Source: a virus
Direction: 5' to 3' (one strand)
Virus record (IMG/VR): IMGVR_UViG_3300015241_000015
Span: 1-64,000 of that record
DNA: 64,000 nucleotides
How positions within the stretch are numbered: the stretch's first letter is position 1; each line of letters starts with the position of its first letter. The notes under the pieces are model-generated. The model was not told the DNA's origin. It was given only the letters and a program-made list of their open reading frames with translations, and made no database searches. The position numbers were made by a program, and so were the translations under genes. Shown here piece after piece: positions 1-49,058 of this stretch.

Positions 1-6
1 GCTGCG

Positions 7-1872
7 ATGGCTAAGGCTGGCGGCCAAACGATTGCGGCAAGGAATGCCTATATTGCCGCCGCCCGTAAATACTCATTTCCAGAAGCAGGCAAAGACAAGG
101 ATGGCAAGTCCGTAAAGCCCAAAACCACTGGCCAAAAGGTGAAGGGCGCCACCATGAAGTTCTTCGGCATGGATATCGATCCGCACATGTTCGCGAGCAA
201 CGCGCTGGATCTGGCGGCGAAGGCCGATCCTGGGGCTCTTAACAGGCCACAGTCTCCGGAAAGCAAGAAGGCTCTAGTGGACTTAGAGCAGAGCAAGAAG
301 AATCTTCAGCTCACAGACCAAGCGATCCAATCCGGTCAATTTACGCTCAATTCTCAAGCCAACCAGGACGAATTAGCCAAGTTGACCTCGCGTGATCCAT
401 CCACTTTGACTACGGATGAAATGCGTAAAAAGAAACGCCTGTATGCCATGCTTCACCCCGAGACGCCCAAGCAGATAGCGGAAAACAAAATATATGAAGA
501 CATGGTGAATCATGTCAAGCCGTCTCCAGAGCAATTGCAGTTCTACTACGAGACCGGCATGTTGAATCGAGAGCACAATGTCATAAAAGATATGGTTCGA
601 CCGGACGGAGAGACGATAGAGCGAGTTTTAAGACCAGACGGCTCGGTTGTTACCGAAAGAAGCATAGGCTATACATACCTGCCGCCCGAGCAAAGGCAAG
701 CAGCCGTAGATCAGTTCGAGAAGATGAAGGAGCACTACATCCAGGCGCACGCGCATGATGGTCTTACCCCGCAACAATTGGAAGACGCAGCGTCTCTGGC
801 GGCCTCGAATTATGAAATGGGGGTAAAGGCGCCAGCGTCGGGACTTAAAGACGATCCACGGGAAGAAGAGATCATACAATCCAGGGCGCTTCAACAGGTA
901 TCAAGGTCGCTAGGCCCAAAGGAGCAGAAGCAGTTAAAGTACCTCGCTACTACATCCCAAGACGACGATGGAAATACGTACCCTCTTCTCCAAAGGCCAC
1001 CGTCAGACGGTACAAGCGGGTGGTTCGGGTCTGGAGAACCAACTTGGGGTGGTCACACCTTAAAGGAAATGACGGAGTTCGAGGGCCGGGTACGGGAATC
1101 TCGGCGCTATGCACTGAAGAGAGGCAATCGGAAACTCAGTGAAGACGATCTCAACACGTTACTTGGACCACGGATCTTCGGGCCGGGCGCGGACAAGCCT
1201 GGAGCCTCCGCCTCGGCCAATGCCCGTCAAGCCACCGCTCCGCCGAGCGCCAAGTACAAGGTGACATTTTCAGATGGCTCAACGGATGTAGTGGATGAGG
1301 CAAGCAAGAAGGTATTAGAAAGCGACAAAAGTTTAGGCCCCGTTAAATTTGAACCCGTTTCGGGCGGTTCCAGTAATGGCGCCGCTAGTGGTGGAAAACC
1401 TGCGAATGGCACGGCCAGTCCCGCTAAGACCCCAGAGTTGAGCGCAGTACCTCCTACGGCCAATGGTAAGGCTCCAAAAGCGGCGGCTGAGCGCACTATG
1501 TCCGACGTACCAAAAGCCCCTACCACCAGCCCAAAGATCGAGCAGCGGGTACAGGCGAAACTTAACTCAGGGCTGGATGCAATTCCCAAAGCTGCCAATA
1601 GCGTCGTGGCGGCTGGGGATAAAGTCATGGGCGGACTCAAGAGTGGAATTGAGTATTTTACTGGACCACAAGGCGACGGTACGCCTGAAAAGCCGAGCGG
1701 CGCGGGCGACAAATGGCAGACTCACCCCGAAGAAACATGGAGCGTTGTGGCTCCAGATGGGACCGTCGTCCATGCCATGCCGCTAACGAAGGACAAAATG
1801 GCGGAAGCCAGGAAAGATCCAAGGTTTGCTGGTTACAAGTTCAAGTCCAACCTAACAGGCAAGGTGGAATAG
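7..1872 (+). CDS. Hypothetical phage protein, possibly 5'-truncated by the window edge
   Basis: I do not recognise a family. The frame is open to the window edge and no ribosome binding site can be seen, so the true start may lie upstream. The first ~300 residues are charged and helical. Residues ~395-530 are rich in Ala, Pro, Ser, Gly and Thr, like a flexible linker. The C-terminus is a short compact segment with a W-S-V-V-A-P-D-G pattern. It ends five bases before the giant polyvalent gene on the same strand, so both are probably co-transcribed. A virion or injection-related role is only suggested by position. Confidence 0.7.
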   Translation: MAKAGGQTIAARNAYIAAARKYSFPEAGKDKDGKSVKPKTTGQKVKGATMKFFGMDIDPHMFASNALDLAAKADPGALNRPQSPESKKALVDLEQSKKNLQLTDQAIQSGQFTLNSQANQDELAKLTSRDPSTLTTDEMRKKKRLYAMLHPETPKQIAENKIYEDMVNHVKPSPEQLQFYYETGMLNREHNVIKDMVRPDGETIERVLRPDGSVVTERSIGYTYLPPEQRQAAVDQFEKMKEHYIQAHAHDGLTPQQLEDAASLAASNYEMGVKAPASGLKDDPREEEIIQSRALQQVSRSLGPKEQKQLKYLATTSQDDDGNTYPLLQRPPSDGTSGWFGSGEPTWGGHTLKEMTEFEGRVRESRRYALKRGNRKLSEDDLNTLLGPRIFGPGADKPGASASANARQATAPPSAKYKVTFSDGSTDVVDEASKKVLESDKSLGPVKFEPVSGGSSNGAASGGKPANGTASPAKTPELSAVPPTANGKAPKAAAERTMSDVPKAPTTSPKIEQRVQAKLNSGLDAIPKAANSVVAAGDKVMGGLKSGIEYFTGPQGDGTPEKPSGAGDKWQTHPEETWSVVAPDGTVVHAMPLTKDKMAEARKDPRFAGYKFKSNLTGKVE

Positions 1873-1876
1873 TCCT

Positions 1877-4800
1877 ATGCCAGAGGTAGCATCGTATACG
1901 CCGGAGGAAGCGCAAGCGAAACTGCTGGCGTTGACCCGTCCAGACGCAGGCATTGCCGCACCACGCGCCCCTACAGCGCCTACTCAGAAGAATACGGTCA
2001 CGCCGCCTCCAGTCACCACCGCAGCGCTACGGCCCCCTGCGCCTCCAGAACCGCCCAAGGCTCCGCCACCTGATCTACCGTCGCCTACCGTTTCCGGCTT
2101 GACCAACGCCAAAGCCAGAGTGGCGGAGATCAACAAGATCGGGGCTGATGCGTATGCGAAGAAATACTCGCTTCCTGGTTCTGTTCAGGAACCGCAATCG
2201 TCGTCGAGCGATCCCCAGGATGTGCGAAGCCGCATTACGGCGGAGGCCCAGCGCCAAGGGCTTGACCCAAACATTGCTCTGGCCATTGCCAAGCAAGAGA
2301 CCGGGTTCAAGCACAAGGTGAACGGGAGAGTGGTTCTTGGTCCTCTCACCCGCAACGGCTACCATGCCCATGGATTGTTTCAGTTGATGCCCTACCGGTT
2401 CCCTAACATCAACATCGACGACGAGGGCGCCAACACGACTGCCGGGATAGGCTTACTTAAGGAACTGAGCAATAAGTACAATGGCAATCTAAACTTGATT
2501 GCCGGGGAGTACTTCGGCGGTCCTGGAGCTATTGGCAAACATGGGGAAATACTGGACTCTTCCCCTCTGACCCAGCAGTACGCTAGGGACGTGCAGGGTA
2601 AGTTTGCCAGCATTCACCAGGACGCTTCAGGCCCACAGCAGCCACAATCCGATCTGGCCAAGGCGAAGGCAAGAGTGATGGAGATCAATCAGATTGGAGC
2701 TTCCGCCTACGCCAAAAAATACTCACTTTCCGAACCAGCAGCGGAACAGTCTGAATCTCAGGAACCGAGTGAACAAGGAGTACCCAATCCGCTTACCTCG
2801 CCACTTCAGTTTTTTGGTTGGCTGGATGAGAAGTGGATGCAGGGAGCGCGCTGGACCAGCAACAAACTATTCCAGAACGACCTGACGGATCGAGCGGCCA
2901 TTGAAGAGCAAAGCAAGAACCCTAACTTGTCGCCAGCGGACCGGGAGTTTTTCGTCTATCAGTTGCATGTTTTCGATGTCAACATGCGAGCCGAAGACGA
3001 TGAAATGAATATGCACTGGGGGTCGAAGACCGAAAGCGAGCGTGAAGCATACAAGTTCAGGCGAGGATGGGATACCAGGAGTTTGGCGGGCAAAGCAGTG
3101 TGGGAGGCTACGGCGGAAGTCTTCAATCCCAGCAATATGGCAATCATGGCGGCTACTGCGGGAGGTAGTGTGATTGCTGAAGCGGTGGGCGCTGTAAGGC
3201 CAGTATTGGGCAGGGCTTTAAAGGTTGGCTTACTGGGGGCCAACACCGCTTTTGCCTTGAAGCTCTCCGCTGGGCAGATCCAGGGCGCGTATGAAGCCTA
3301 CCAGAAGAATGATCTACCGGGCGTAATCGAAAATGCTGGCATGGTGGCCGGCACGCTCTTGGCCGTGGGCGCGGGGGCCTACGAAGGGAAACAGAAGAAT
3401 CGGGCGGCCCGCGAGCAAGCTACCCGCGATAAGACTTTGTTCGTTGCTGAAGTTCTAAAGGCCGTACAGGATCATCCTGGATTGCAGGAAGAACTGAACA
3501 AGCAGGGCGTGCCCATCCCGCAGCTTACCAAGGAGCAGTTACAGGCGGCCATCGACCATATCCACAAAGTCAATGCTGATATCAAAAAGCGGGAGGGGGA
3601 GCGCAACACCAAGCTTAAAAAGATGGCGGATCAGGGAGTCTCGCCCGCTCCCGCCGCTCCATCGGACGAAGACCTTGCGGACCCGCGCAAACGTCTGGCG
3701 GGCACGCCGCCCCCTGAACTGCAACCCGGCCACGTCAAGTCGTTGCTAACGGCTGCCCCAGGTATGACTGAGGAGCAAGTTCGCGAGCAGATTGCTACCC
3801 CTACTCGCCAACGCCAACTCCAGCCCACACCCGAGATTCCGATTGAGTCGCTGAACGACCGTGATAGTCGCCTACTCGATTCGAGCGCCTACGGGCAGTG
3901 GCTGGACCACCACATTGCCAAGGCGGCGGGCGACATGGCGCGCATGTTGAAGTTGGTCGAAATCACAACGCAGCGGCACGAGTATGAACTGGCTTACCAC
4001 TTGACTGAAGAAATCCAGTCCAAGATCAAGACTGACGCGGAGCCAACGGTGGCCAGCAAGGAACAAGCGCTGAAGTTGGAGCGGTATCAGCGTCTTCTGA
4101 AGTGGCACATGTCGGAGCCGTCGGTAGCGCCTATTGAGACCAACTTCGTCAGCATGACTGCGGAAGAACGGGCCGTAAAGCGCCAGGAGTATGCCGAAGA
4201 AGAAGGCCGGGCGATCCTGGTCCGGGAGCGTGAGGCGCGGATTACCGCTCTTGAAGACCAGAAGAAGCGTGTCCAGGATGAGATTGCGGCCTTCCGGGAG
4301 CGAGCGACTAAAGTCCAGGATCAACGGCGGGTCGGACCGGCGCCATCTCCTGAGCAGTTGGAATTCGATGCGGTAGGGCAGGAACTGGAGCGCATTGCCC
4401 ATAGCAACATGCACGTGGACGCGGATGAGATGGAGAGCCAACTACGTCAAGGCAAATCCACGCCATTGAGCGCCGACGAAAAGCACTTCACGGAACTGCA
4501 AAAGAAGCGCAAACAGTTACTGGATCTGCTCGATCCCCAAAAACCACAGAAGCCCCTGTTTGAGCATGTGGCGCTAGAAGCGGAACTGACGGAGCGGGAG
4601 CAGGCATTGCGCGAGATTGAGGCCCGGCTGGCCTATGAGGCCACCCATGCCACGACGCCTGAGGAAGCCATAGAAAAGGGCCAGCGCGCCGAAGAAGCCA
4701 GAAAACTGGCGGCCCAGTTGAAGGCCGACAGGGATAAGACTGAGGCGGAACGCTTAGCTAGCCGGGCAAAACAACAGGAGTTCCCCCGCGGCGAGCCCAT

Positions 4801-7800
4801 CGCAGTCCATGTGGGAATGCCTGTAACCCTGACGTTGGCGTCTGGTCAGGAAGTCTCTGGGCACTGGGCTGTGGTTCGAGGCGGTGAGGTAATCGCATCG
4901 CACGATCCATTCACGTTCCATAGGAACGATAGATTCATCCATCAAGACCTGAATCCAATCAACTACGAGGATGAGAACTTCCACGAGGCTAGGGAAATCG
5001 TGAAATCCAGAGGGAAGAATCCCGATCTGGATGAAATCCATAACACTCGCGAGACGAACGCGGCTCCGGTGCTATCCCCGGATGGGCAAGTGCTGGGCAA
5101 TACCGCCACATTCCTGGAAGCCATGCGGATTCACAGTCAAAAAGGCCAGAGTGAGGCTATTGCGGCCGACCTGCTCAGGAAGGCTTACCAGTTTGGCTTG
5201 GATCCCGACGCCATCCCCCACGCGACCGACAAGCCGGTCTTGGTTTTCATGCTCGATGAGCGGCCTACCGACTTGGGGGGCCTGATGGAATTAACTTCCG
5301 GTCTTTTGCGCCCGGAAGACATCACCATGACCGAGGCGGAGCAAGGGGTGCAGTCGGGATACCGCGTCTCAGGCGACACGTTGAATTGGGTGTCTGAAGC
5401 GTTTAAAGGGATGGGCGATCAAGCTTTTGTCCGCAATCTGCCCCCGGTCCAAGCCGCTGAACTGGTCGACCGCATGATCAAGGACGGGGTGATTGGGCAG
5501 GCGGAGCGCGGCGCTTACATCAACGAAGACGGCGAGCTTACCCCCAAGGCTATCCAGGTAGTAGAAAACGCGCTGATGGGCAAAGTGATTCCAGATGCCA
5601 ATGCGCTGGCGGGAATGCCGCGAGGCGTCTTCATTCGCCTGTCCCAAGCCATGGCGCCACTACTGAAAATGCGGTTGGAAGCCCCCATTTGGAATATTGG
5701 CGACTATCTGCACCAGGCCATCCGCAACTGGACGCGCATCGAGAAGATGGGAGACACGCTTGATGGTTACGGCCAGTCTGGCGATTCCAAATCGACCCTC
5801 TGGTACAACTACCAAAACAGCAAACTGATTCCAGGAGAGGCCGATCATCCCATTGTTGAAGCCTTGACCAAGTTACTGGAAGAATCGCCCAAGACCATTG
5901 AAAAAGCGCTGTCCGGCTACATCGGCGAAGTCGATGGCAAGCAGACTGGATGGCAGTTTGAACCGGGAATGGAGCCAGCGGAGTCTTTCAATTGGCATAT
6001 CGCCAACGACATGGGCGTAGAAGTCAAAGCCAGTGAGTGGGGCACGTTAGAACCCGCTTACGAAGAGCCGAAGCCTGAAGCGAAATCCAAAGCCCGCGGC
6101 AAGATCAAAGCGGCCAAGGGCAAGAAAGCGGAAGCCCCCAAAGCGGCAGAGCCAGAGAAACCTTCACCCACCGGTCCCACCATGGCCGACGTGGACACCA
6201 AACTGCGCGGCATGTCTGAGGAGGATCTGGACCGGGAATACGAGCATGGCGCTGCGGCGGATGGCACAGACGATCCCTACGTAGTCGCAGTGGGCAAAGA
6301 ACTACGCCGTCGGCAAACGGAGCCAGTGGTTCAGCCGGAAAAGCCCCCGGTTAGCCCCATGGAGCCAACGCCAGAAGAGAAGGCCAAAGAAGATTTCACC
6401 AAGGAAGTCCAGGAAGTCATCCGGGTCAACGGGCCGATCACGAGAGACCAGTTCGTCGACATCCTGACCCGCCATCCCAACTTTTCGATGGGCAAAGCCA
6501 CCGACCTTGTGACTTTTGTCGAGAAGGGGGTGCGGCGAGTCTGGAATATGTCCTTGGACGAGTATCTGGCGCAGGCTTTTGGCGCAGTTGAATTGATGGG
6601 CGAAGGGCCTAAATCGCCCGTAGAAGAAGAGGTTAGTGTTCTAGGGCAGCTAGGCAAGAAGAAGGGCATGGCGCCCACGCCAAAGGCCAGCGTTGATGGC
6701 CCTAAGGGCGCGGTAGAGTTCCTGGCGGATGGCCGGGCTATTTTGCACTTGATGGAACACGGCGATGTCTCAACCTTCCTCCATGAATGGGCTCATGTGG
6801 CCCACAGAAACCTTATGGGAGAGGATCGGGTCGCGGTTGACAAGTGGGGGGCGCAACTTCGCAAAGAGTGGAATCCCAAGAAAGATCCCGCGTACACACG
6901 CTGGCTGGAGGGGGCTGAGGATAGCCACGAAAAGCGCGTGTCCTATCTGGCGGTCTACGTTCAAGAGAAGTTTGCCCGGGCCTTTGAGCGGTTTGTGCAT
7001 GACGGCATAGCGCCGAACGAGGAAATCAGGCCGGTATTTGAGCGGCTGAGGGACTGGATGCGCGAGGTTTATGAGAACGTATCAATGCAAGGCTCGTCGC
7101 TGGATGTAAAGATCCCGGCAGATATTCGTAGGCTGTTTGAGCGGATGGCGGGGGGCACGCCCGAGGATCTGGAAGTTCCGGGCGAGAAGGCTGGTGCTGG
7201 AACTGCCTTAATGTCCCAGACGCCAAGTGCAATCCAAACCTTGACCAAAGAGCAACAAAGGGTTTTGGATAAGTATCTGTCTGTTGTGAAGTGGGACAGC
7301 AAAGGGGAGAAAATCGATACGTGGAAGAAGAAATTAACAAGCAAAGAGCGTGACATTCTTTACACGATTCCTTACGATGCTCAGCCCCTTGAGGCATTTG
7401 GTCCACGCGTTAGAGACATTATCCAATGGGAACGCGATCATCCAGAACATGAAAAAGCCATGCAAGGGAAAAGTGGTGTTGATGCTGCTGTCAAAGCGTT
7501 CGAGGAGCATCCAGTCCATTTCAAGAACAATCCCAACGTCAACCATTTCACGGAGTCGCAAATCAATGAACTAATTTCAAAGTTAAGCCCAGCAGCAGTG
7601 AAGAGATGGGCTGATAGTGAAAAAGTAACGCCGGAGGGACTGACTCGTCGCGTGAAGGAGATGAGGCGGAATGTTGCCTCATTGGGGGTGGCGCTACGCA
7701 GTGAAGGGGACTGGGCTGACGTTCCACTCGAAGCCCTCAGAGCGCGATCGATGGTGGATGAAATGTTCCCGCTTGGCAAGCGGGAGTCATTAGATGATGG

Positions 7801-10800
7801 CATGACCATAGAAGCGGATCTGGAAGAGTCACGGCCAGACCGCACCATCCTTTCCCGCTCCATCAAAGACGACGAACGGCGCACACAGGAACGCAAGGAA
7901 GAAGAGGGCGAGACCCTTACGCCAGAACAGCGAATGGATGCGACCGAGATTTTCAATCATGGAGAATCCTTTAGCGATAGCTTGGATACCGCAAGATTTC
8001 GAGTATTTTCTGACGCCGAAAAGGCCGTGATATGGGCGCGGGAGAATGCCAGCAAGACCACGGGCCTGAAGATTTACAACCTGGAGGACCGTTCCGGCAA
8101 GGCTTTCGTTCATTATGCCCCACGCGATCCAAGCGTTCTGTTTCAAGAGACGGAACCGGGCGAAGTCGAGCGGCGCCTGCGTGCGATTGAAGAGCGTCTG
8201 CGCAATGTGGGCCTGGGAGAGCAAGAGGCCAAGCGGCTAGCCAAGATGCGCGATGACTTGAAGGCCCAGCAACGCCGCGCTGGAACCTCTCCCGACCCCA
8301 AGCCGGGGCGTATAGTTAAGCTATTCGGACCCCACGGGGAAGAATTGAAATTAGGAGGGCGCGATGAGGAAGCCAAACCGGGACGAACAGTATCTGATGT
8401 CCCTGCTCCACTACAAGACCCTCGAAGCCCTCGAAGAGCGGATGAACAGCCCCGCGACCCCCGAGGAACTGAGAAGGATCGAGCCGCCGTGGGACCAGTA
8501 CGAGGAACAGGAGAGGGTGGAAGAGCAGGACATGAGGATGAACGACCTGGAGAGACTCTACGCACTGTCCAGCCCGCCCGAGTAGACACGCCCACCAAGC
8601 CACGGGGCACGGAAGTCTACGATCCCGCGCAATGGTCTGAGACCATCGAAACCTTGGGGATGCCAGCCAATACCCCACCGCCTACTGTGAGAATTCCCAT
8701 GTGGCTGCGGCGTATGCTGAAATTCCCCGCGCAGCCGGAAATGGTCGAGGCGGGGCTTTCCGGCATAAAGCAGCATGACGCCGTGGTGTTGGCGGCCCCC
8801 ACCGGAGGCGGCAAGACCTACATGATGGCGGCCATGGCCAACCAGTTGGTCAAGCCCGACATGAAAGTCCTGGTAATGACCATCAATAAGTCCCTGATTC
8901 GCAAGCGCGGCGATGGTCTAATTTCGGTTTTCCGCGATTTCGCTGTGCCACTGGAAGAATTGAAGTCCGGGGTATCCGATCCCGGGAAACCGGGTGTCTA
9001 TGCCGTTACCTACTCGACCAGCGTTAGCCGCAAGGAAATCAGGAAGGCGAAGTGGGATCTGATTATCTGCGATGAGATCGGCGTGGCCCGCAACCCTTAT
9101 TCAGAGACCGGCATAATGATGAAGGAACTGGCCGGCAACAGCAAGAAAGCCATCTATATCAGCGCCACGCCCTTTCATAACGCGCTCGAACTCTACCACA
9201 TGGACAAACTGGGGTTGTGGCGAGAGACCGGCTTCGATGCCTGGGGTAAGCAGTTTGGAATCTTCAAAGATACCGATGGCAAGTATGGTGGAAGCGCCAG
9301 CGATTCGCTCAAATTAATCAAATTGCGAAGTCAATTGATCGAGCGCGGGCAGTTTGTCAGCGTGTTGAAGAACATGGAAGGCTTCAATATCTCGTTGGCC
9401 CAAGTGCCGTTGACTCCTGACCAGGAAGTGATTCTAGCCAACATCAAAAAGGGCTTCGATGCTGCGGCTGACCACTACACCAAACTGGGGCCATCGGGAA
9501 CGGCGTTGCTGGCCGCCACCCGTAAGAACGCAGCCACGTTCACCAAGAAATGGCTGGAGCGGATACGCTTGCCTCAGGCGATCGAGATGGCCAAGGAGAT
9601 GCAAAAGCAAGGCTGGAAGGTGGCCTTCTTCAGCGAGACCAAAGCCTCGCGGGAGGACATCTTTAGCTTCCTCCAGCCGGCGAACTTTGCTTTAGATGGC
9701 AAAATTAGAGCCTTGCTCCCCGATTTGCCGGATGTGCCAGAAGGGTTATTCGCAGCCTTTGGCGAGGATCTGGCGAACTATAGCGGACCCGACAGTTCCC
9801 ATCGCACCGCCGAACTGGACGCCTTCAACAGCAATGAGAAAAAGCACATCTACTTGTCCTTTGCCGCTGGTGGAATGGGCTTGAACGCTCAAGACAAGAT
9901 GGGAACTCAGCCGCGGGCGGTGATCTTCCTGGGGCCACCCTATTCCGGCATGATGCTTGAACAGGGCTTGGGCCGCTTCTGGCGTTTCGGAACCAAGAGC
10001 AACGTCCACGCCATCTTCATGACCTCGAATGCCGAGGCTGAACTGAATATGCTGGTGTCGAAGATCGCTCCGCGCATGTCCTCGTTGCGGGCCTTGGTGA
10101 ACGGGATCAATAACGAAGACAAATTCGTCAACACCCTGCACGCCATGCGGACCACGGAACAGGAGCAAGCCGCTTACGAGTTGGGTAACAGCATCAAATT
10201 CAGCCCCAGCGAGTTCCGTCCCATCCAGACCCAGGCGGTACAGTCATGGAAGGATGTCAAAATCGGGCCGGCCAAGGAGGCGATGAATAAGGGCCTGAAG
10301 ATGCCGGATACGGGCGGGCCTCCCAAGGTTGGAAAGCTGTTTCAGGAATCGGAGCCGCCCAAGCCCCCAGAAGACCTCTCCATACCAAAGAACACGGAAG
10401 CCCGCGCTGAGCACGACAGACAGAAGAAGGACATCGTAGACGGCAAGCCTATGCCTGGAGTACCAGCAGGCATAGAAAATGCCCCACAGGCCATCCGGGA
10501 GCGTATTGCGGAGGTGGCAGGGGTCGAAGCCAAAGCGGCAGAGGATGGAGCCGAGGACAGTGAAGAGAAAGTTGCGGCAGTCCAGAGCGCCTACAAAGCC
10601 GTGCGTAGCCGTTTTGCCAGCCTGAGTCACGCCTTAGGAGAGTCGGACGCGTCAGTAGCCTACAAGGCTTTTCTTGCCAACCTGTTCATCAGCGGCCACC
10701 GCAATATACTCAACGTCACCAGGGAGGCTGGGATTCCACAAATTGGAGAAAAGATCGTGCGCTGGGCTCGTCAATACGAAGCCAGAAAAGGCCAAGTGGA

Positions 10801-12736
10801 GGGACAGTTCCTCCCGCGCCTCCAGAAGATCCACATGGAAAACGGTATCAGTCCACAGCGCACCATCGAGATCGCGGATAAGACCACCCGCAAGATGAAA
10901 AAGGTGAGCGAGTATGAGGCCATGGTGATGGCGATTGAAGGGAAAGCGCCCCCGGCCAACGCCCGCATTGCCAAGGCCGCTACCCAGATTGCCGAACTGC
11001 TTAAGGACATGCACAAACTGGCCGCCGATACCGGAGTCGTGGTTGAACGATATGTGAACGGCGCCTTGAAGCATGTAAAATTCTCAGAATTCCCGTCCGA
11101 TCCAACCTACTTCCCGCACATATTCGACCCTGACTATGTGATTCGCGACTACGTGGATCCCACCACCGGCAAGAAAAGCGATATCACCCTGCGGGAACTG
11201 CTGAAGGGGAAACCGGGCGAGGCGCGCTGGAATGCCATGATTGATCGCATAGCCAAAGAAAAAGGCGTAAAGCGGTCGGAAGTCGAGGATTACTTCAAGC
11301 AACATACCCGGGATCATCCATTAGCCGGAAACGTGGAAAGATCCAGGGAACAAGACCTTGGATTCTATCTCACCACCCCGGAGGCTATGCTCAAGTACAT
11401 TGAGGAGTACTCCGAAACCATAGCGCGCACCGAGCTTTTCGGGCAGCAGCGGCAGAAACTGAACCGGATCGTATCCGATATCCCCAATCAAGGGGCGCGG
11501 GAAGTAACCACGGAGATCATGGACGCTCTACTGAGCCAGCGCATCATGAGCCACGAGGAACGGGCCATCATGAAAGTCGCGGCCAACGAGGCTGTGATTA
11601 CCACCATGACCACCTCGTCGATCAAAGCCATGACCCACTCAGTCTGGGCCGCGCTGCACACCAATACCCGCGCATTTTTGACGAGCCTCGGGAGAGCGGC
11701 GCTGTGGGACCGAAAATTGGCCCGCAGTCTATTCCAGGGTTCAGGTGCGGGCGCCGAGCATTACCGGAATGGAGTGCTTGATAGCTATGGCGCCAGCAAA
11801 GGAACTCTCGCGTCTGGATTTCTTAAATTTACCGGCTTCCATAAAGCTTTCAATTTTGCCCGGCTGGTGGTGGATGGATCCGCACGCCACTTCATGGAAG
11901 TAACTGCCTTACCAAAACTGATGAAGGGCGGGAAAGGCGCTGAATACTATCGCCGGGCATTGAAAGAAACCTTCCTGTTTGAAGACGGGCAGATCGACAA
12001 GGCCATCGCGGCTGGATCGTGGAGTGCAGACGAACTAAATTGGGGCGCCAAAGCCCTGGTGGACCGGACTACTTACTCCCACAGTCCACTTGAATTGCCC
12101 CCAGCATGGAGATCAACTGCTGGTACTCCAGCGGCTGGCGTTGGTCTCGCGGTGCTCCGCCAATCCACGTTGCTTAAGGGCTACACCTACAAAACCTGCA
12201 CCATGTTGACCGACCGGCTCTACCGTGAGGCCAGGAAAGGCAACTGGAGGCCGTGGATCCCCTTTCTAACGTTGGTTCCAGCCCTGGGGTCGGCCATTGT
12301 CGGAGCCAATCAACTGCTGCGAACAGCGCTGGGCGCTCCAGCGCCAGAAAACGACGAAGAGTCTGGCCCCTGGAGTGAGATCAAGCATTACGCCGAAAAC
12401 ATTGGGCACATGATGGGAATCGCCATCGTGTTCAACATCCTGGACCGCAAAGAAAAGGACGAGAACTACCAGCCCCTTGGGGATATCTCCGAGTACATTG
12501 CCGGAAAGCCAGCCATGGATACGTATCGAACACTCGTAGGGATGCCCTTAGGCATTGCTTACGCCAAAGACGCCAAGACCTCAAGGGGCAGGACCGCAGA
12601 GGAGAAGCGGTGGAAAATTGCTGGAGACTATGTTGGAGACGTATACCCACTTGTCAGACCGTTCGTGAAAACATTGGAGCCGGAGCCGAGACGGAAATCG
12701 CACCGTTACCAGATGACCCCAACTCCAAGGGAATAG
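1877..12736 (+). CDS. Giant polyvalent phage protein: transglycosylase, ParB/DdrB-like, zincin, SF2 helicase
   Basis: This 3619-residue protein belongs to the large polyvalent proteins thought to be injected with phage DNA. Residues ~115-250 form a lytic transglycosylase domain with probable catalytic E141 in Q-E-T-G-F. A ~27-residue motif (A-K-A-R-V-x-E-I-N-x-I-G) flanks it on both sides. Residues ~410-470 are hydrophobic and ~500-960 are coiled coil. Residues ~970-1130 resemble the DdrB-like ParB domain (S-H-D-P, then G-N-T-A). A zincin motif HEWAH is at 1636-1640. An SF2 helicase has Walker A (A-P-T-G-G-G-K-T) near 2308, DEIG near 2399, S-A-T-P, and an arginine-finger motif near 2700. The C-terminal ~850 residues are helical and end in hydrophobic segments. 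Likely roles are cell-wall entry, DNA protection and remodelling of host DNA. Confidence 0.85.
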   Translation: MPEVASYTPEEAQAKLLALTRPDAGIAAPRAPTAPTQKNTVTPPPVTTAALRPPAPPEPPKAPPPDLPSPTVSGLTNAKARVAEINKIGADAYAKKYSLPGSVQEPQSSSSDPQDVRSRITAEAQRQGLDPNIALAIAKQETGFKHKVNGRVVLGPLTRNGYHAHGLFQLMPYRFPNINIDDEGANTTAGIGLLKELSNKYNGNLNLIAGEYFGGPGAIGKHGEILDSSPLTQQYARDVQGKFASIHQDASGPQQPQSDLAKAKARVMEINQIGASAYAKKYSLSEPAAEQSESQEPSEQGVPNPLTSPLQFFGWLDEKWMQGARWTSNKLFQNDLTDRAAIEEQSKNPNLSPADREFFVYQLHVFDVNMRAEDDEMNMHWGSKTESEREAYKFRRGWDTRSLAGKAVWEATAEVFNPSNMAIMAATAGGSVIAEAVGAVRPVLGRALKVGLLGANTAFALKLSAGQIQGAYEAYQKNDLPGVIENAGMVAGTLLAVGAGAYEGKQKNRAAREQATRDKTLFVAEVLKAVQDHPGLQEELNKQGVPIPQLTKEQLQAAIDHIHKVNADIKKREGERNTKLKKMADQGVSPAPAAPSDEDLADPRKRLAGTPPPELQPGHVKSLLTAAPGMTEEQVREQIATPTRQRQLQPTPEIPIESLNDRDSRLLDSSAYGQWLDHHIAKAAGDMARMLKLVEITTQRHEYELAYHLTEEIQSKIKTDAEPTVASKEQALKLERYQRLLKWHMSEPSVAPIETNFVSMTAEERAVKRQEYAEEEGRAILVREREARITALEDQKKRVQDEIAAFRERATKVQDQRRVGPAPSPEQLEFDAVGQELERIAHSNMHVDADEMESQLRQGKSTPLSADEKHFTELQKKRKQLLDLLDPQKPQKPLFEHVALEAELTEREQALREIEARLAYEATHATTPEEAIEKGQRAEEARKLAAQLKADRDKTEAERLASRAKQQEFPRGEPIAVHVGMPVTLTLASGQEVSGHWAVVRGGEVIASHDPFTFHRNDRFIHQDLNPINYEDENFHEAREIVKSRGKNPDLDEIHNTRETNAAPVLSPDGQVLGNTATFLEAMRIHSQKGQSEAIAADLLRKAYQFGLDPDAIPHATDKPVLVFMLDERPTDLGGLMELTSGLLRPEDITMTEAEQGVQSGYRVSGDTLNWVSEAFKGMGDQAFVRNLPPVQAAELVDRMIKDGVIGQAERGAYINEDGELTPKAIQVVENALMGKVIPDANALAGMPRGVFIRLSQAMAPLLKMRLEAPIWNIGDYLHQAIRNWTRIEKMGDTLDGYGQSGDSKSTLWYNYQNSKLIPGEADHPIVEALTKLLEESPKTIEKALSGYIGEVDGKQTGWQFEPGMEPAESFNWHIANDMGVEVKASEWGTLEPAYEEPKPEAKSKARGKIKAAKGKKAEAPKAAEPEKPSPTGPTMADVDTKLRGMSEEDLDREYEHGAAADGTDDPYVVAVGKELRRRQTEPVVQPEKPPVSPMEPTPEEKAKEDFTKEVQEVIRVNGPITRDQFVDILTRHPNFSMGKATDLVTFVEKGVRRVWNMSLDEYLAQAFGAVELMGEGPKSPVEEEVSVLGQLGKKKGMAPTPKASVDGPKGAVEFLADGRAILHLMEHGDVSTFLHEWAHVAHRNLMGEDRVAVDKWGAQLRKEWNPKKDPAYTRWLEGAEDSHEKRVSYLAVYVQEKFARAFERFVHDGIAPNEEIRPVFERLRDWMREVYENVSMQGSSLDVKIPADIRRLFERMAGGTPEDLEVPGEKAGAGTALMSQTPSAIQTLTKEQQRVLDKYLSVVKWDSKGEKIDTWKKKLTSKERDILYTIPYDAQPLEAFGPRVRDIIQWERDHPEHEKAMQGKSGVDAAVKAFEEHPVHFKNNPNVNHFTESQINELISKLSPAAVKRWADSEKVTPEGLTRRVKEMRRNVASLGVALRSEGDWADVPLEALRARSMVDEMFPLGKRESLDDGMTIEADLEESRPDRTILSRSIKDDERRTQERKEEEGETLTPEQRMDATEIFNHGESFSDSLDTARFRVFSDAEKAVIWARENASKTTGLKIYNLEDRSGKAFVHYAPRDPSVLFQETEPGEVERRLRAIEERLRNVGLGEQEAKRLAKMRDDLKAQQRRAGTSPDPKPGRIVKLFGPHGEELKLGGRDEEAKPGRTVSDVPAPLQDPRSPRRADEQPRDPRGTEKDRAAVGPVRGTGEGGRAGHEDERPGETLRTVQPARVDTPTKPRGTEVYDPAQWSETIETLGMPANTPPPTVRIPMWLRRMLKFPAQPEMVEAGLSGIKQHDAVVLAAPTGGGKTYMMAAMANQLVKPDMKVLVMTINKSLIRKRGDGLISVFRDFAVPLEELKSGVSDPGKPGVYAVTYSTSVSRKEIRKAKWDLIICDEIGVARNPYSETGIMMKELAGNSKKAIYISATPFHNALELYHMDKLGLWRETGFDAWGKQFGIFKDTDGKYGGSASDSLKLIKLRSQLIERGQFVSVLKNMEGFNISLAQVPLTPDQEVILANIKKGFDAAADHYTKLGPSGTALLAATRKNAATFTKKWLERIRLPQAIEMAKEMQKQGWKVAFFSETKASREDIFSFLQPANFALDGKIRALLPDLPDVPEGLFAAFGEDLANYSGPDSSHRTAELDAFNSNEKKHIYLSFAAGGMGLNAQDKMGTQPRAVIFLGPPYSGMMLEQGLGRFWRFGTKSNVHAIFMTSNAEAELNMLVSKIAPRMSSLRALVNGINNEDKFVNTLHAMRTTEQEQAAYELGNSIKFSPSEFRPIQTQAVQSWKDVKIGPAKEAMNKGLKMPDTGGPPKVGKLFQESEPPKPPEDLSIPKNTEARAEHDRQKKDIVDGKPMPGVPAGIENAPQAIRERIAEVAGVEAKAAEDGAEDSEEKVAAVQSAYKAVRSRFASLSHALGESDASVAYKAFLANLFISGHRNILNVTREAGIPQIGEKIVRWARQYEARKGQVEGQFLPRLQKIHMENGISPQRTIEIADKTTRKMKKVSEYEAMVMAIEGKAPPANARIAKAATQIAELLKDMHKLAADTGVVVERYVNGALKHVKFSEFPSDPTYFPHIFDPDYVIRDYVDPTTGKKSDITLRELLKGKPGEARWNAMIDRIAKEKGVKRSEVEDYFKQHTRDHPLAGNVERSREQDLGFYLTTPEAMLKYIEEYSETIARTELFGQQRQKLNRIVSDIPNQGAREVTTEIMDALLSQRIMSHEERAIMKVAANEAVITTMTTSSIKAMTHSVWAALHTNTRAFLTSLGRAALWDRKLARSLFQGSGAGAEHYRNGVLDSYGASKGTLASGFLKFTGFHKAFNFARLVVDGSARHFMEVTALPKLMKGGKGAEYYRRALKETFLFEDGQIDKAIAAGSWSADELNWGAKALVDRTTYSHSPLELPPAWRSTAGTPAAGVGLAVLRQSTLLKGYTYKTCTMLTDRLYREARKGNWRPWIPFLTLVPALGSAIVGANQLLRTALGAPAPENDEESGPWSEIKHYAENIGHMMGIAIVFNILDRKEKDENYQPLGDISEYIAGKPAMDTYRTLVGMPLGIAYAKDAKTSRGRTAEEKRWKIAGDYVGDVYPLVRPFVKTLEPEPRRKSHRYQMTPTPRE

Positions 12737-25906: not shown

Positions 25907-26803
25907 CTACGCAGCTTTCTGTATGCCCCCCGGCAATTCGTCCCAGACCCGGCCATCCAAAAGACGACAGGTTTTTGGCTTTCCGACACGGACCCCAGCC
26001 AAGCCGTCCCGCCAGTTGTGCGCGGCGATGACCGACATGCGGGCGTAGCCCTCGATCTGGACGTAGGCGCCGCCGGGATAGCGTGGATCCATGACCAGAG
26101 GGGCCGTCAGGTACTCGCCCCACGTTTTGAAATAAAACGGGACGCCGGCGGCCGAGCATTGATCGCGGATCGAGCGAACCCAGTCGGGGTGTAGCGGCCT
26201 GGCGTAAGGGCCAATTTCACCGCCCACCATGACCAAATCAAGCTTATAGGGCTGTTCCTTGGCTTCGAGGGCCCAGGAGATGTCCACAGGGCCAAGCATT
26301 GGTTCTACGGCCACCCAGCGCGTGGCGGCAGGGGTTTCTAGGAGCGGGATGATGCGCCATTTTTCCGCTTCCGATTCGACCGAGACGCCCAGCCAGAGAT
26401 TGGGCAGTGGTTGGGGGTAAAGCCGTTCCATGATGCTTTTCATTCTGGCGGCCCGCTTGGTCAATACCTGGAACGTGTGACGGGGGTTGTCGTCGACCAC
26501 TCGCAGGATCTGTTCTATCCAGCCGTCGTGGGCTTCCTCGTGGAAGAGGTCGCTCATGGTGTTGATCATGATGCGGCGGGGCTTGATCAGATGGTAGGGG
26601 CGGTCAAGGGTTTTTCGGGAAAAGCGGAGTTCCCCGGTCCAGGCAGGCTGGGATTCAAGCACCTCGACCAAGCCGGAGTAGGCTCTAAGTTCGCCATTCA
26701 CGCGTAGCGCACTACGCGCCGACGAGCAGTTGCGGCAGCCCTCGCTTACACGCGAACATCCCCGCACGCAATTCCAGGCGACATCGAATATTTCATTCAC
26801 CAT
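25907..26803 (-). CDS. DUF5131 (phage Gp37/Gp68) family protein
   Basis: This 298-residue protein has the family's Cys-rich N-terminus (W-N-C-V-R-G-C-S-R-V-S-E-G-C-R-N-C), then M-S-D-L-F-H-E, V-L-T-K-R-A, W-L-G-V-S-V-E, and E-P-M-L-G-P-V. The family is widespread in phages; its function is unproven, and the clustered Cys residues could hold an iron-sulfur cluster. The start overlaps the end of the upstream small gene. Confidence 0.88.
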   Translation of the reverse strand: MVNEIFDVAWNCVRGCSRVSEGCRNCSSARSALRVNGELRAYSGLVEVLESQPAWTGELRFSRKTLDRPYHLIKPRRIMINTMSDLFHEEAHDGWIEQILRVVDDNPRHTFQVLTKRAARMKSIMERLYPQPLPNLWLGVSVESEAEKWRIIPLLETPAATRWVAVEPMLGPVDISWALEAKEQPYKLDLVMVGGEIGPYARPLHPDWVRSIRDQCSAAGVPFYFKTWGEYLTAPLVMDPRYPGGAYVQIEGYARMSVIAAHNWRDGLAGVRVGKPKTCRLLDGRVWDELPGGIQKAA

Positions 26804-26972
26804 CTTCGTTCTCTTTCTCGTACTCGTCGAAACTCTTATTGATGCAGGGTCCGCACACGTGCCAGTCGGCAATAAGATCGTGGTCGGTACAGGGCGCGCC
26901 GCAATGGATGCAGACGCCATCCTTGGGGCAATCGCACTCGCCGTCCTTCCAGTGATCTTGGGGGTAGGTCAT
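26793..26972 (-). CDS. Small Cys-rich zinc-binding protein
   Basis: This 59-residue protein has C-D-C, C-I-H-C-G-A-P-C, and H-V-C-G-P-C motifs, enough for two zinc sites. It overlaps the upstream gene by ATGA and the downstream DUF5131 start by 11 nt. Function unknown. Confidence 0.65.
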   Translation of the reverse strand: MTYPQDHWKDGECDCPKDGVCIHCGAPCTDHDLIADWHVCGPCINKSFDEYEKENEDGE

Positions 26973-45309: not shown

Positions 45310-46135
45310 TCTCATAAGCGATTCTAGCGCGGGTGAATCGAGGGGATTCTGGGCCCAACTGCCGATCGAGCTACGCAAGCCCAAAACTGAAAAATTGGAG
45401 CGAACGCCCGTGGATGGATCTTTGCACCAGCGGCCGCCAAACCTTCTATAGGATGGGTTCTGAAAGTCGCTGAGCAAGGTCGAAATTCGCCTATACCCTA
45501 GCCTACCCGATGTCGAGAACGTGGCCTATAAACGATTCTAGACGCGGTAAACACCCGCTATTCGCGCCGGTTTGACGGAATTGGAAAATTTAGGGCAGAT
45601 GCCGTGACTGGTATCTCTCCCTAAGCGAGCCTAAGAGTTCAAGGAGCAAAGACTCTCCTCCTCCTCCGCTTGGTCCCCCCAAGCTTCGCTGGGCCCCAAA
45701 GTCTCAACTCCCAGCATCGACCGACAACCCCCAAGTCGCTCACGCGCTACCGTATCGATACCCGTATACGATATACCGTATTGTTAACCATAGTTAACTG
45801 CTACATGTTAATCGTGATTCACTCGTTCTGTTAACCAGCGTAACATTAAGATCACATTAATCTTCACGCTCCCCTGCCCCACACGCCCTTTCCTGCCCTG
45901 TTCCGCTGTTGCGCGCATAGTCGCCATGCGGGTTCCGTGCGCTGTTCTGTGCCCAGCTTGCCAGCATCGAGAGCTAGTATCCGTGCAGGCTAGCCTACCC
46001 CCCAGTGCGTGAAAGTGCCCTATAAACGATCCTGGAGCGGGTAGCACGGGCCAGAGTGTGTGATTACGCGCCAATCGGCGAACGGCCGCGCAAGCCTACC
46101 TGGAAATCGCCATGCTCTAGAGCGGGTGAATGAGA
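45310..46135. repeat. Dispersed TATAAACGATTCTAG-type repeats
   Basis: Two long copies (45499-45555 and 45991-46046) share TAGCCTACCC, then GTG and CCTATAAACGAT, then a GCGG-rich end. Two partial copies lie near 45310 and 46092-46125. All have the same orientation. The 45068-46489 gap holds no convincing gene, so these could be origin or promoter elements. Confidence 0.55.
45750..45860. other. AT-rich palindromic segment, possible origin
   Basis: Inside the non-coding region several palindromes cluster: CGTATCGATACG-like and CCGTATACG-like words, GTTAAC-CATA-GTTAAC, and repeated GTTAA/TTAAC boxes. Local base composition is much more AT-rich than the flanks. This suits a replication origin or a regulator-binding site, but no initiator protein points to it. 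Confidence 0.35.
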
Positions 46136-46211
46136 CCCTGTGCTTGGCCTACTTCTAGGGGGGTGGGAGGGGGAACCGCGCGGGTGGGTGGGACCAAGAC
46201 GACTTGGCTCC

Positions 46212-46396
46212 GACGAAAAGTCAGTTTGGTTTGGTTTTTGGTTTTGTCAGCGACAATAATTTTTGGTGTCGGTTTGGTGTGGAGTTTTGGAGTTTGGTTT
46301 TGATTTGGTTGGTCGGTGGTTCTGGGAATTTTTTGGTTTTGGTTTGATTTGGCGGTTGGTCTGTTATTTTTTTTGATTTTGATTTTGATTTGCCCG
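46212..46396. repeat. T/G-rich strand-asymmetric tract
   Basis: About 185 nt of the plus strand are almost free of C and built from TTTGG, TTTTGG and GATTTTG words. The complementary frame would encode a Lys/Pro/Thr-rich low-complexity peptide that I do not accept as a gene. It may be a single-strand or R-loop-prone element. Confidence 0.5.
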
Positions 46397-46489
46397 TAGA
46401 GGGAGGGTGGAAGAACCTGGAGAGGCCCCTTTGATAACCGGCGGAGAGATAGCCATCCACGGGGTCTGGGTGAAATTTTCTGGATTAAT

Positions 46490-46798
46490 TTAAGGAAGTG
46501 CTTTCTTTTCCAAGACTTGGACGAACTCTTTGCGTTGTAATTGGAGAGGCAATTCAGCGCGGGCGGCTTCTGAAAGCAGCGCTTCCATGTGTTGGATGGT
46601 GGCCCATTTGCCGTGAGGGAAGAGTTCAGGGGTGTCGTAGCATTCTTTGAGTAGGGCTATGAGCCATGCGAGCCAGTGTGGTTCGATCCAAGAGTGGAAC
46701 CATTCTTCGTAGTCGCGGTCTTGGGCGAAACGCTGAAGGGCCTGAAAGGACAGCATTGAGCCGATGTAGACTAGGCCGCTCTGAACGTGTTCGCTCAT
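46490..46798 (-). CDS. Hypothetical protein, helical
   Basis: This 102-residue protein is Trp/Leu-rich and helical (W-F-H-S-W-I-E-P-H-W-L-A-W-L). Its C-terminal coding sequence, V-Q-V-L-E-K-K, recurs in a non-gene frame at ~46.88 kb, so a duplication of ~30 bp is visible. Function unknown. Confidence 0.55.
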   Translation of the reverse strand: MSEHVQSGLVYIGSMLSFQALQRFAQDRDYEEWFHSWIEPHWLAWLIALLKECYDTPELFPHGKWATIQHMEALLSEAARAELPLQLQRKEFVQVLEKKALP

Positions 46799-46894
46799 GG
46801 GGTATTACTCTACCATCCACCGAAGGATCCACGGCCTTTGGCTGAAATTTTATGGAAATTTTGGTGGCAAGCCCTTTCTTTTCCAGGACTTGGA

Positions 46895-46978
46895 CTATCG
46901 ATCCAGCCATGCTTTGAAGCCCAGATAGAGGAGGAGCATGGCGAAGAAAATCAGCCCAGCGATGTCGGCACTGTCCAT
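46895..46978 (-). CDS. Micro membrane protein
   Basis: This 27-residue peptide is one hydrophobic helix (I-F-F-A-M-L-L-L-Y-L-G-F). The frame fits the gap exactly after the upstream gene, but no clear Shine-Dalgarno is present. Confidence 0.4.
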   Translation of the reverse strand: MDSADIAGLIFFAMLLLYLGFKAWLDR

Positions 46979-46986
46979 GGTGGTGA

Positions 46987-47352
46987 TTATAGACCGGGAT
47001 CGGCGAATGAGAAGGCCATGCGTTTGGTTCCGTCGGGCATTTCGATGATTACGCCTGGGAACTTGAAGAGGCCGTAGACGGCGTAGTTGCAGGGCTGGCC
47101 GCGGTCTTTGGTGGAGTTGCTGAAGGCTTTGAAAGAGGGTTTTGAATAGCGGCCGATGCACTCTTGGGTGGCTGAATCGGGGTTGGCGCCGCAGTCTTTG
47201 AAGGGTGCGTAATCGGCGACAGCGGCGATGTGGTGGCAGATGGGGCAGACGAAGCGCCACTGGAGGAAGTCTTGGCCGAAGCGTTGTTTGCCATCGGCCA
47301 GCCACTGGTCGTAGGTGGTTAGTGTGGGGTTGGGCTGTTTTGTTTTTGGCAT
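46987..47352 (-). CDS. VVA0879-type phage protein
   Basis: This 121-residue protein has W-x7-F-G-Q-D, then W-R-F-V-C-P-I-C-H-H-I-A, C-I-G-R-Y-S, and P-C-N-Y-A-V-Y-G-L-F. These match a phage and bacterial family with one zinc-like site and no known function. The start follows the upstream gene closely. Confidence 0.75.
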   Translation of the reverse strand: MPKTKQPNPTLTTYDQWLADGKQRFGQDFLQWRFVCPICHHIAAVADYAPFKDCGANPDSATQECIGRYSKPSFKAFSNSTKDRGQPCNYAVYGLFKFPGVIIEMPDGTKRMAFSFADPGL

Positions 47353-47357
47353 CGGGG

Positions 47358-47738
47358 TTACTTGGGCAGTTGAGACATCCCGAGGGTGCATCCGCAGACG
47401 ATACAGAAGGCGAGGACCAAGGGGGATTCGTTGCGGAGGACGCCGAAGGATTCGATGGTGGAGCGGCATTCGGGGCAGTGGGGTTTCTTGGTTTTGGTGA
47501 TGGGGGTGCGTTCGTCGAGGGCGGTCGCGGCTTGTTTGGAGAGTTCTTTGAAGTCTTGGACGGGGGTTTCGCTGAAGAAAATGCCCAATTCGAGGCGTTT
47601 GGGGATGCCGTCGGGGAAGAGGGATTCGACTTGGAGGTGGACGGGATCGCCGGACTTCATGCGATGGATGTTGGACGGTTCGAGGACGAGGGCGAGGAAT
47701 TTGGATCCGTCGTCTTTGGTGCCAACGATCTGGTTCAT
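47358..47738 (-). CDS. Hypothetical protein with zinc ribbon
   Basis: This 126-residue protein has a C-terminal zinc ribbon, C-P-E-C-R-S and C-I-V-C-G-C. The N-terminus starts with a small beta sheet. Its ATG overlaps the stop of the upstream gene. Function unknown. Confidence 0.6.
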   Translation of the reverse strand: MNQIVGTKDDGSKFLALVLEPSNIHRMKSGDPVHLQVESLFPDGIPKRLELGIFFSETPVQDFKELSKQAATALDERTPITKTKKPHCPECRSTIESFGVLRNESPLVLAFCIVCGCTLGMSQLPK

Positions 47739-47914
47739 TTCTGGTCTCTTTCTTCGCGGTTTTCCGGGTAACAGCCACAGGGCCATTCGGGGCATGTTTC
47801 ATCGACGGGGAGGCCGTCATATTCGTGGCAGTAATGGATGAAATGGCCGGTAAGGATGCGGTCGCGCCACTTGAGGCATTCGTCGATCCAGGCCGGGTCT
47901 AGGGTCTGGTTCAC
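47735..47914 (-). CDS. Small Cys/His-rich protein
   Basis: This 59-residue protein starts at GTG overlapping the upstream stop (GTGA) and ends overlapping the next ATG. It has H-F-I-H-Y-C-H-E and C-P-E-W-P-C-G-C. Function unknown. Confidence 0.6.
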   Translation of the reverse strand: MNQTLDPAWIDECLKWRDRILTGHFIHYCHEYDGLPVDETCPEWPCGCYPENREERDQK

Positions 47915-48150
47915 TTTGTGCCGCCGTAAGGGGGACGGACCTTGGCCAATTTCACGGCTAATTTGTTAAGGCGTTCGCCGAGTTGAACCATCATTTCTTC
48001 GATATGTGGGATCTTGGAGATTTGTTGCGGGAACCCCCCTAATCGAGGGCTTTTGATTAATTTGTCTCTTGCTTTCATGTCCTTCTGCATTTTGGCGATG
48101 CGATCCAATCTTGCATCGATCCTTTTCATTCGGCGCCGCCACGTATTCAT
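47911..48150 (-). CDS. Small basic coiled-coil protein
   Basis: This 79-residue protein is Lys/Arg-rich with helical segments (M-V-Q-L-G-E-R-L-N-K-L-A-V-K-L). It is ATGA-coupled upstream and GTGA-coupled downstream. Function unknown. Confidence 0.55.
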   Translation of the reverse strand: MNTWRRRMKRIDARLDRIAKMQKDMKARDKLIKSPRLGGFPQQISKIPHIEEMMVQLGERLNKLAVKLAKVRPPYGGTK

Positions 48151-48446
48151 TCAGCCTCCTTGAGAATCAAACACTTGGCTTCTTTTCGCCATTTGGGGTA
48201 TTCAAAGACGCAGTTGCAGTGGATGTCGACGCGCTTTCCCTGGTCGAACCACAACTTGATTGCTGGCCAGAAGGGGCTGTTTTTACTTGGCATGGTGAGG
48301 ATTGGCTCGCCGTCTTTGGCGAGCATAAGGATCTTACCGTAAGCTATTTCAAAGATGAATTCTTTGCCGACGGCGGTCTTGATGCGCTGGGTGTGGGCGG
48401 ACCAATCGAACCTGCCTGGACCGAATCGGACTCTTTTGCGTGGCAT
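48147..48446 (-). CDS. Small basic hypothetical protein
   Basis: This 99-residue protein starts behind GGAGGAGG. It has K-E-F-I-F-E-I-A-Y-G-K-I-L-M-L and H-C-N-C. It heads a leftward cluster and is divergent from the gene at 48561. Function unknown. Confidence 0.55.
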   Translation of the reverse strand: MPRKRVRFGPGRFDWSAHTQRIKTAVGKEFIFEIAYGKILMLAKDGEPILTMPSKNSPFWPAIKLWFDQGKRVDIHCNCVFEYPKWRKEAKCLILKEAE

Positions 48447-48560
48447 TTGTGTGGGCCTCCTCCAGAGGTCTTTTACTCTACCATCGAGGGGGATTCCCGT
48501 GAAATTTTAAAGATTTGCACAGGGTCGGGCCGGTATGATTGGCCGCTTAAAGGAGTGAGG

Positions 48561-49058
48561 ATGGCAAACGAAACCGTGGAGACACTCGAAAGGTTCAACG
48601 CGCTACTAGATTCGGATGAAGACGAAGCAAGAAAGGCGTTTCATGGGATCTATCGCGTCCATGATTACGCTGAGGGAAAACGCCAAGTGGGCACGATTGA
48701 GTGTGGCAGTTTCGGCTTTGAGGATACGCCGAAAGCCCTTTATCGTCTGTTGTTTCTAGCGAAGCCGAAGCGTGTGGATTTCAGTGATATGTACAAGTCT
48801 GAGAGTCTTTTCGCCCTAACCTCGGTCAACGGCGCCTTCGTGGCCGATTTTCAATTCTATAAGTATGAATTGGCGGCCTATGTATCGGCGGCTAAAGAGC
48901 ACATTGAAGGACGTGAATCGGGCATTATCTGTGGGGTGCCGGGGTCTGATAACGGCATCCGTGCTAAATCGCCGGAATTGCGTTTGTGGGCCTCCACTCT
49001 TAAAAAATGCCTAGATAGGACGTGGATGGTGTACTGTGGCAATGATTTTGAGGTGTGA
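48561..49058 (+). CDS. Hypothetical protein
   Basis: This 165-residue protein starts behind AAAGGAG, downstream of TTGCAC and TATGAT. It is acidic with mixed alpha-beta character. The same frame is open upstream but overlaps the divergent gene and is not coding. Function unknown. Confidence 0.6.
   Translation: MANETVETLERFNALLDSDEDEARKAFHGIYRVHDYAEGKRQVGTIECGSFGFEDTPKALYRLLFLAKPKRVDFSDMYKSESLFALTSVNGAFVADFQFYKYELAAYVSAAKEHIEGRESGIICGVPGSDNGIRAKSPELRLWASTLKKCLDRTWMVYCGNDFEV

What the first reader, a model, noticed from the sequence alone, without database searches (positions are those of the whole stretch)
1877..12736. Giant polyvalent protein joining entry, protease and helicase modules
Transglycosylase, DdrB/ParB-like domain, zincin and SF2 helicase sit in one 3619-residue chain with an internal repeat on both sides of the transglycosylase. 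Polyvalent proteins are known, but this order and size make a useful case for the injected-protein idea.
Basis: partly seen in the sequence, partly recalled or inferred. Interest (0 to 1): 0.6.

Follow-up and report, generated by a model that had tools for sequence, protein, structure and literature searches.

The report
Giant multidomain phage virion protein
A probably short-tailed phage carries one very large protein that joins a cell-wall-cutting enzyme, a metal-dependent protease and a DNA motor; it is a good example of the already described 'polyvalent' proteins that phages are thought to pack in their particles and inject, not a new kind of system.

Summary
The ORF is real: 1877-12736 (+), 3619 aa, single frame, on an 81.9-kb linear phage fragment. 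Confirmed parts: lytic transglycosylase (residues 120-222) between two copies of a 27-residue repeat; HExxH zincin (1607-1760); SF2 Snf2/Strawberry-notch-type helicase (2284-2743), motifs intact. The DdrB/ParB-like block (about 992-1283) is real but degenerate: it has lost the GNxR arginine. The zincin belongs to a large family: at least 533 viral-contig stretches, 137 in bacterial genomes, and Bordetella phage BPP-1 Bbp10. Relatives are often 2-6 kaa, so 3.6 kaa is not exceptional. In BPP-1-like phages the transglycosylase is usually the separate gene just upstream; here, and in one betaproteobacterial prophage, it is fused to the zincin protein. Zincin-to-helicase order recurs in three other giant proteins. 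Iyer et al. 2017 described this class with the same partners, and a comparable 4515-aa protein is in virions of podovirus JC1. Likeliest reading: a late-made virion ejection/effector protein of the polyvalent class. Packaging, injection and self-cleavage are inferred here, not shown. The full four-module combination was not seen elsewhere in the sample. New member of a known kind; modest interest.

The parts
1877..12736 (+). Giant polyvalent protein ORF, 3619 aa
   Evidence: open frame 3626 aa, no stops inside
2093..2173 (+). Repeat copy 1, residues 73-99 (SGLTNAKARVAEINKIGADAYAKKYSL)
   Evidence: the repeat finder D1; shuffle test
2234..2542 (+). Lytic transglycosylase (SLT) domain, residues 120-222; candidate catalytic Glu 141 (QETGF), GLFQLMP and GEYFGGPGAI motifs
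   Evidence: PF01464 E=2.3e-9; the only SLT in the 81.9-kb contig
2648..2728 (+). Repeat copy 2, residues 258-284 (SDLAKAKARVMEINQIGASAYAKKYSL)
4850..5725 (+). DdrB/ParB-like block, residues about 992-1283; ASHDP motif kept, QER..H/R region and GNxR arginine lost
   Evidence: PF18763 E=0.0013 on the piece; homologues L216-L223
6695..7156 (+). Zincin metallopeptidase domain, residues 1607-1760; HEWAH at nt 6782-6796; E1697 and E1704
   Evidence: phrog_9880 5.5e-18; alignments A1 and A9; AlphaFold pLDDT 84
8726..10105 (+). SF2 helicase/translocase, residues 2284-2743 (GGGKT 2310, SAT 2429, QGLGRFWR 2696)
   Evidence: PF04851, PF00176, PF00271; motifs; aligned with L064 and L031; the only ResIII in the contig
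10484..12733 (+). C-terminal region, residues about 2870-3619, with hydrophobic stretches at 3459-3481; no assigned family
   Evidence: no Pfam hit; hydropathy; only sub-threshold similarity to BPP-1-like C-termini
1..1872 (+). Preceding ORF, at least 623 aa, cut by the contig end; its stop lies 4 nt before the giant ORF's ATG (same operon); no assigned family

Best explanation
A polyvalent virion (ejection/effector) protein of a BPP-1-like, probably short-tailed phage. It is made late with the structural genes, packed in the particle and delivered with the DNA. The N-terminal transglycosylase would open peptidoglycan during entry. The zincin would cut the giant chain, or host proteins, to free modules. 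The Snf2/Sno-type SF2 motor would act on the incoming DNA, for example as antirestriction or DNA remodelling. The degenerate ParB-like block is probably binding or structural. By descent it looks like a fusion of the Bbp11-type transglycosylase gene with the Bbp10-type zincin gene, plus an added helicase. Shown: the domains, their intact motifs (except ParB), gene position, and gene-pair versus fusion in relatives. Inferred: packaging, injection, cleavage, antirestriction.
For: Domain hits and intact catalytic motifs. It lies at the end of the + strand structural genes (terminase, portal, major head protein, tail proteins), directly after another ORF and before the '-' strand regulatory/replication genes. 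Zincin relatives in BPP-1 Bbp10 and eight other phage records examined lie in the structural block after an SLT or other 543-1552-aa gene. SLT ORF adjacent upstream in at least 19 of 132 loci, fused in L138. Zincin then helicase in L064/L176, L031/L190 and L191. Foldseek best matches of the zincin model are viral giants, some named large polyvalent protein, crystallin beta/gamma motif-containing or ART-PolyVal. Literature: Iyer 2017 describes MPTase fusions to lysozyme, SWI2/SNF2 and ParB; JC1 gp69, 4515 aa, found in purified virions with 51 unique peptides.
Against: No proteomics for this phage. The contig is a linear fragment, so the join between the tail genes at its 3' end and this ORF at its 5' end is assumed. 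PDB fold search of the zincin model found no zincin. C-terminal homology to BPP-1-like proteins is below significance. No methylase partner for the helicase (no NPPY/DPPY), so a DarB-like role is weakened. The short-tail assignment rests on distant portal and capsid matches.
Confidence: 0.8

Rival explanations
1. Polyprotein: the zincin cleaves the chain before or during assembly, so the mature virion holds separate transglycosylase, ParB/zincin and helicase proteins, and no single giant protein is injected.
For: Relatives encode the transglycosylase as a separate gene; P1 DdrB, which also has ParB and a zincin, is processed before packaging according to Iyer 2017; Pro-rich linkers and repeats bracket the SLT domain.
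Against: N4 virion RNA polymerase with its zincin is packaged uncut. No cleavage site can be predicted here.
Confidence: 0.3
2. Mainly a DNA-conduit ejection protein like T7 gp16, with the enzymatic inserts secondary or decayed.
For: N-terminal transglycosylase followed by a long chain with hydrophobic segments near the C-terminus; T7 gp16 has the same order of parts (PMC8954989); the ParB part is degenerate.
Against: Zincin and helicase motifs are intact under deep divergence, which argues for selected activity.
Confidence: 0.25
3. Tail tape-measure protein of a long-tailed phage carrying an SLT domain.
For: SLT matches in the tape-measure proteins of SPbeta-like phages.
Against: Zincin relatives sit in BPP-1-like genomes, not long-tailed ones; portal and capsid match podovirus-type families; helicase and ParB-like modules are not expected in tape measures.
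Confidence: 0.04
4. Assembly artefact joining separate genes.
For: Single metagenomic contig; no near-identical copy found.
Against: One uninterrupted frame, even composition, and the same module adjacencies in independent contigs.
Confidence: 0.02

Closest known systems
Phage polyvalent proteins (Iyer et al. 2017, PMC5512222)
   Same: Zincin MPTase fused with peptidoglycan hydrolase, ParB and SWI2/SNF2 modules in one giant chain encoded with late genes.
   Different: No Pfam LPD domain detected; helicase without the usual adenine methylase; ParB active site lost.
Bordetella phage BPP-1 Bbp11 + Bbp10 and relatives (UFJF_PfDIW6, JessA, SAC/CP2, PS25B.1, OANV1)
   Same: Homologous zincin block (24-31% identity), same place in the structural operon, transglycosylase next to it.
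   Different: There the SLT is a separate gene in BPP-1, UFJF_PfDIW6 and JessA, and the zincin protein is about 2.0-2.5 kaa without an SF2 helicase; here they are fused.
DarB-like giant proteins of Bcep22-like podoviruses (JC1 gp69, 4515 aa) and phage P1 DarB
   Same: Giant protein at the end of the virion genes; virion-associated by mass spectrometry in JC1; P1 DarB has an SF2 helicase.
   Different: DarB has an adjacent adenine methylase; none is detected here, and tblastn of residues 2181-3619 against the phage collection gives no match.
IMG/VR L191 giant ORF (3504 aa)
   Same: Zincin 1512-1636 (38% identity) and helicase about 2033-2551 in the same order and spacing.
   Different: No SLT or ParB hit by Pfam.
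T7 gp16
   Same: N-terminal lytic transglycosylase in a large ejected protein (functional analogy).
   Different: No homology shown; gp16 has no zincin or helicase.

Membership tests
Polyvalent protein | Several disparate enzymatic or binding domains in one chain of an invasive element | tested here: met
   SLT, ParB-like, zincin, SF2 helicase
Polyvalent protein | Encoded among late/virion structural genes | tested here: met
   terminase, portal, MCP and tail genes on the same strand; the link across the contig ends is assumed
Polyvalent protein | Homology of individual domains to polyvalent clades | tested here: met
   Zincin relatives carry LPD22, ART-PolyVal, ddrB-ParB, PBECR; viral fold hits to polyvalent proteins
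Polyvalent protein | Transferred with DNA into the host | not testable with these tools
   needs virion proteomics and injection assays
Zincin metallopeptidase | HExxH plus downstream Glu on a second helix | tested here: met
   H1636, E1637, H1640, E1697, E1704 invariant in 56 sequences; helices 32-45 and 85-110 of the model
Zincin metallopeptidase | Fold match to a solved zincin | tested here: not met
   no PDB match at E<0.001; only weak ATLF sequence similarity, E=0.03
DdrB-like ParB | Conserved domain sequence and active-site arginine (GNxR) | tested here: not met
   Homologous block, but GNTATF replaces GGNSRTM; fold search inconclusive on a low-confidence model
SF2 helicase, Snf2/Strawberry-notch group | Walker A, DE box, SAT and QxxGRxxR motifs in two RecA lobes | tested here: met
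   DEIG instead of DEAH/DECH; relatives hit AAA_34 and Helicase_C_4
DarB-type methylase-helicase | Adenine methylase fused N-terminal to the helicase | tested here: not met
   no NPPY/DPPY motif and no MTase Pfam hit
BPP-1 Bbp11/Bbp10 pair | SLT and zincin as separate adjacent genes | tested here: not met
   fused in one ORF here and in L138

The most novel reading that the evidence does not exclude
A self-processing delivery polyprotein: fusing the ejection transglycosylase to the zincin effector makes the protease release the entry module (bracketed by the duplicated repeat) from a DNA motor that works in the cytoplasm, an entry-triggered maturation not described for podoviruses in the papers read here.
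Probability: 0.12. Interest if true: 0.6.

Novelty: new member of a known kind. Interest (0 to 1): 0.3.

Why it matters
It adds a natural gene-fusion case suggesting that the BPP-1-type transglycosylase and zincin proteins belong to one functional unit, and it offers a single protein in which entry, protease and DNA-motor roles could be tested together. The class and its predicted role were already known.

Tried and rejected
Close relatives of residues about 61-310 and about 2842-3619 in viral contigs: none. tblastn of residues 2181-3619 against phages: none. Profile searches of all Q pieces against 8260 ORFs: only zincin and helicase have family depth. C-terminal homology by hhalign: best probability 3.8%, not accepted, although several weak alignments fall on the same diagonal. 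ParB fold model: pLDDT 65, no fold match. The 27-aa repeat is in no relative; resemblance to the upstream ORF (AAARKYSFP) is weak, p about 0.05. Tape-measure and assembly-artefact readings rejected.

Full report
Observation. The window is bases 1-64000 of an 81,925-bp IMG/VR linear record. One frame, 1877-12736 (+), runs uninterrupted for 3619 codons. Its ATG follows the stop of the preceding ORF by 4 nt; that ORF is cut by the contig start and matches no family. Pfam and PHROGs find an SLT transglycosylase at residues 120-222 and an SF2 helicase at 2284-2433, with the second lobe at about 2639-2705. PHROG 9880 marks a zincin block at 1608-1757. A 27-residue repeat lies on each side of the SLT domain, far above chance: score 114, maximum of 2000 shuffles 57. 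The DdrB/ParB-like domain is invisible in the whole chain at E<1, reaches E=0.0013 as a piece, and is secured by homologous blocks in other giant ORFs with clear ddrB-ParB hits.

Are the parts intact? The SLT has a Glu in QETGF and the GLFQLMP and GPGAI motifs. The zincin HEWAH and two downstream Glu residues are invariant in 56 diverse relatives, and an AlphaFold model (pLDDT 84) puts them on two helices, though no solved zincin was matched by Foldseek. The helicase keeps GGGKT, DE, SAT and QxxGRxxR. The ParB-like block keeps ASHDP but has lost the QER..H/R region and the GNxR arginine that its relatives keep, so it is probably not a working ParB enzyme. No adenine-methylase motif is present.

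Context. On the rest of the contig the same strand carries terminase, portal, major head protein and tail-protein genes. Capsid relatives are Myxococcus Mx8/Mx9 and Stenotrophomonas BUCT555. After the giant ORF the strand flips to regulatory and replication genes: an excisionase-like protein, a DnaG/AAA primase-helicase, an integrase and RecT. The contig is a fragment, so the structural genes at its 3' end are assumed, not shown, to join the ORF at its 5' end.

Relatives. tblastn of residues 1501-2900 finds the zincin block in 21 phage records: BPP-1 Bbp10, Pseudomonas UFJF_PfDIW6, Xanthomonas SAC and CP2, Vibrio, Caulobacter, Leptolyngbya and others. In the nine examined, the zincin protein is 1974-2748 aa and follows a 543-1552-aa gene in the structural block; Pfam finds SLT in that gene in BPP-1 and UFJF_PfDIW6. 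The 169 ORFs recovered run from fragments to 4904 aa, and one contig seen whole holds 5986 aa. An SLT ORF lies directly upstream in at least 19 of 132 loci with room to tell, and is fused to the zincin ORF in L138. The SLT model was seeded with three sequences, so these are lower bounds. The helicase lies downstream of the zincin in the same chain in L064/L176, L031/L190 and L191; L191 has nearly the same size and spacing as the window protein. ParB precedes the zincin in L220 and the helicase in L217, but follows the zincin in L023. One of 12 other helicase-bearing giants scanned also has an SLT domain. So each adjacency recurs, while the full set of four was not seen elsewhere in the sample.

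Literature. Iyer et al. 2017 (PMC5512222) define polyvalent proteins, state that zincin domains in large proteins are fused to lysozyme, ART, SWI2/SNF2 ATPase, methylase and a distinct ParB, report DdrB-ParB with lysozyme in Acinetobacter prophages, and propose injection and zincin processing; they note P1 DdrB is cut before packaging while N4 RNA polymerase is packaged whole. Proteomics of podovirus JC1 finds its 4515-aa DarB-like gp69, at the end of the virion module, in purified particles (PMC9144972). P1 DarB carries an N-terminal capsid-targeting sequence (PMC9024508). T7 gp16 is the functional analogue for an N-terminal transglycosylase in an ejected protein (PMC8954989).

Mechanism. Most likely the protein is made late, packed, and delivered with the DNA; the transglycosylase acts at the cell wall, the zincin cuts the chain or a host target, and the helicase-type motor works on the entering DNA. 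Only the domain content, motif integrity, gene position and the gene-pair-to-fusion relation are shown here. The C-terminal 750 residues and much of 290-990 have no detectable relatives; C-terminal similarity to BPP-1-like proteins is suggestive but not significant.

Verdict. The description is accurate apart from the state of the ParB part. New member of a known kind, with a mildly informative gene fusion.

Noticed in passing
L217:351-9992: A 3214-aa giant ORF with ddrB-ParB and a Strawberry-notch-type helicase has a LAGLIDADG_3 domain at residues 1503-1567, just before the helicase DE-box match: probably an intein inside the helicase.
   Followed up: no
L138:7181-13765: Betaproteobacterial prophage ORF (2195 aa) fuses an N-terminal SLT directly to the zincin protein and has short SLFP-type repeats after the SLT; L069 and L090 have paired DVDxLFP motifs near their N-termini. 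Paired short motifs near the N-terminus may be a theme, perhaps docking or packaging signals.
   Followed up: partly
1-1872: The ORF before the giant gene is cut by the contig start; near its start is AAARKYSFP, faintly like the AYAKKYSLP of the giant protein's repeat (p about 0.05).
   Followed up: partly
54756-56021 (-): A 421-aa ORF with a weak reprolysin/matrixin-type metallopeptidase match (E=0.0012), a possible second metalloprotease of this phage.
   Followed up: no
25907-26920 (-): A DUF5131 protein, E=1.4e-72, next to the integrase.
   Followed up: no
46001-48000: Sharp local GC-skew rise (0.277) with T-rich + strand; ORFs 46987-47820 (-) and 48069-49058 (+) match no Pfam family.
   Followed up: no
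L002:18860-18925: The contig 3' end lies in an open frame that reads like the N-terminus of a pectin-lyase-type tail spike (DGVTFTTIQSAITDAC...), so both contig ends cut genes.
   Followed up: no
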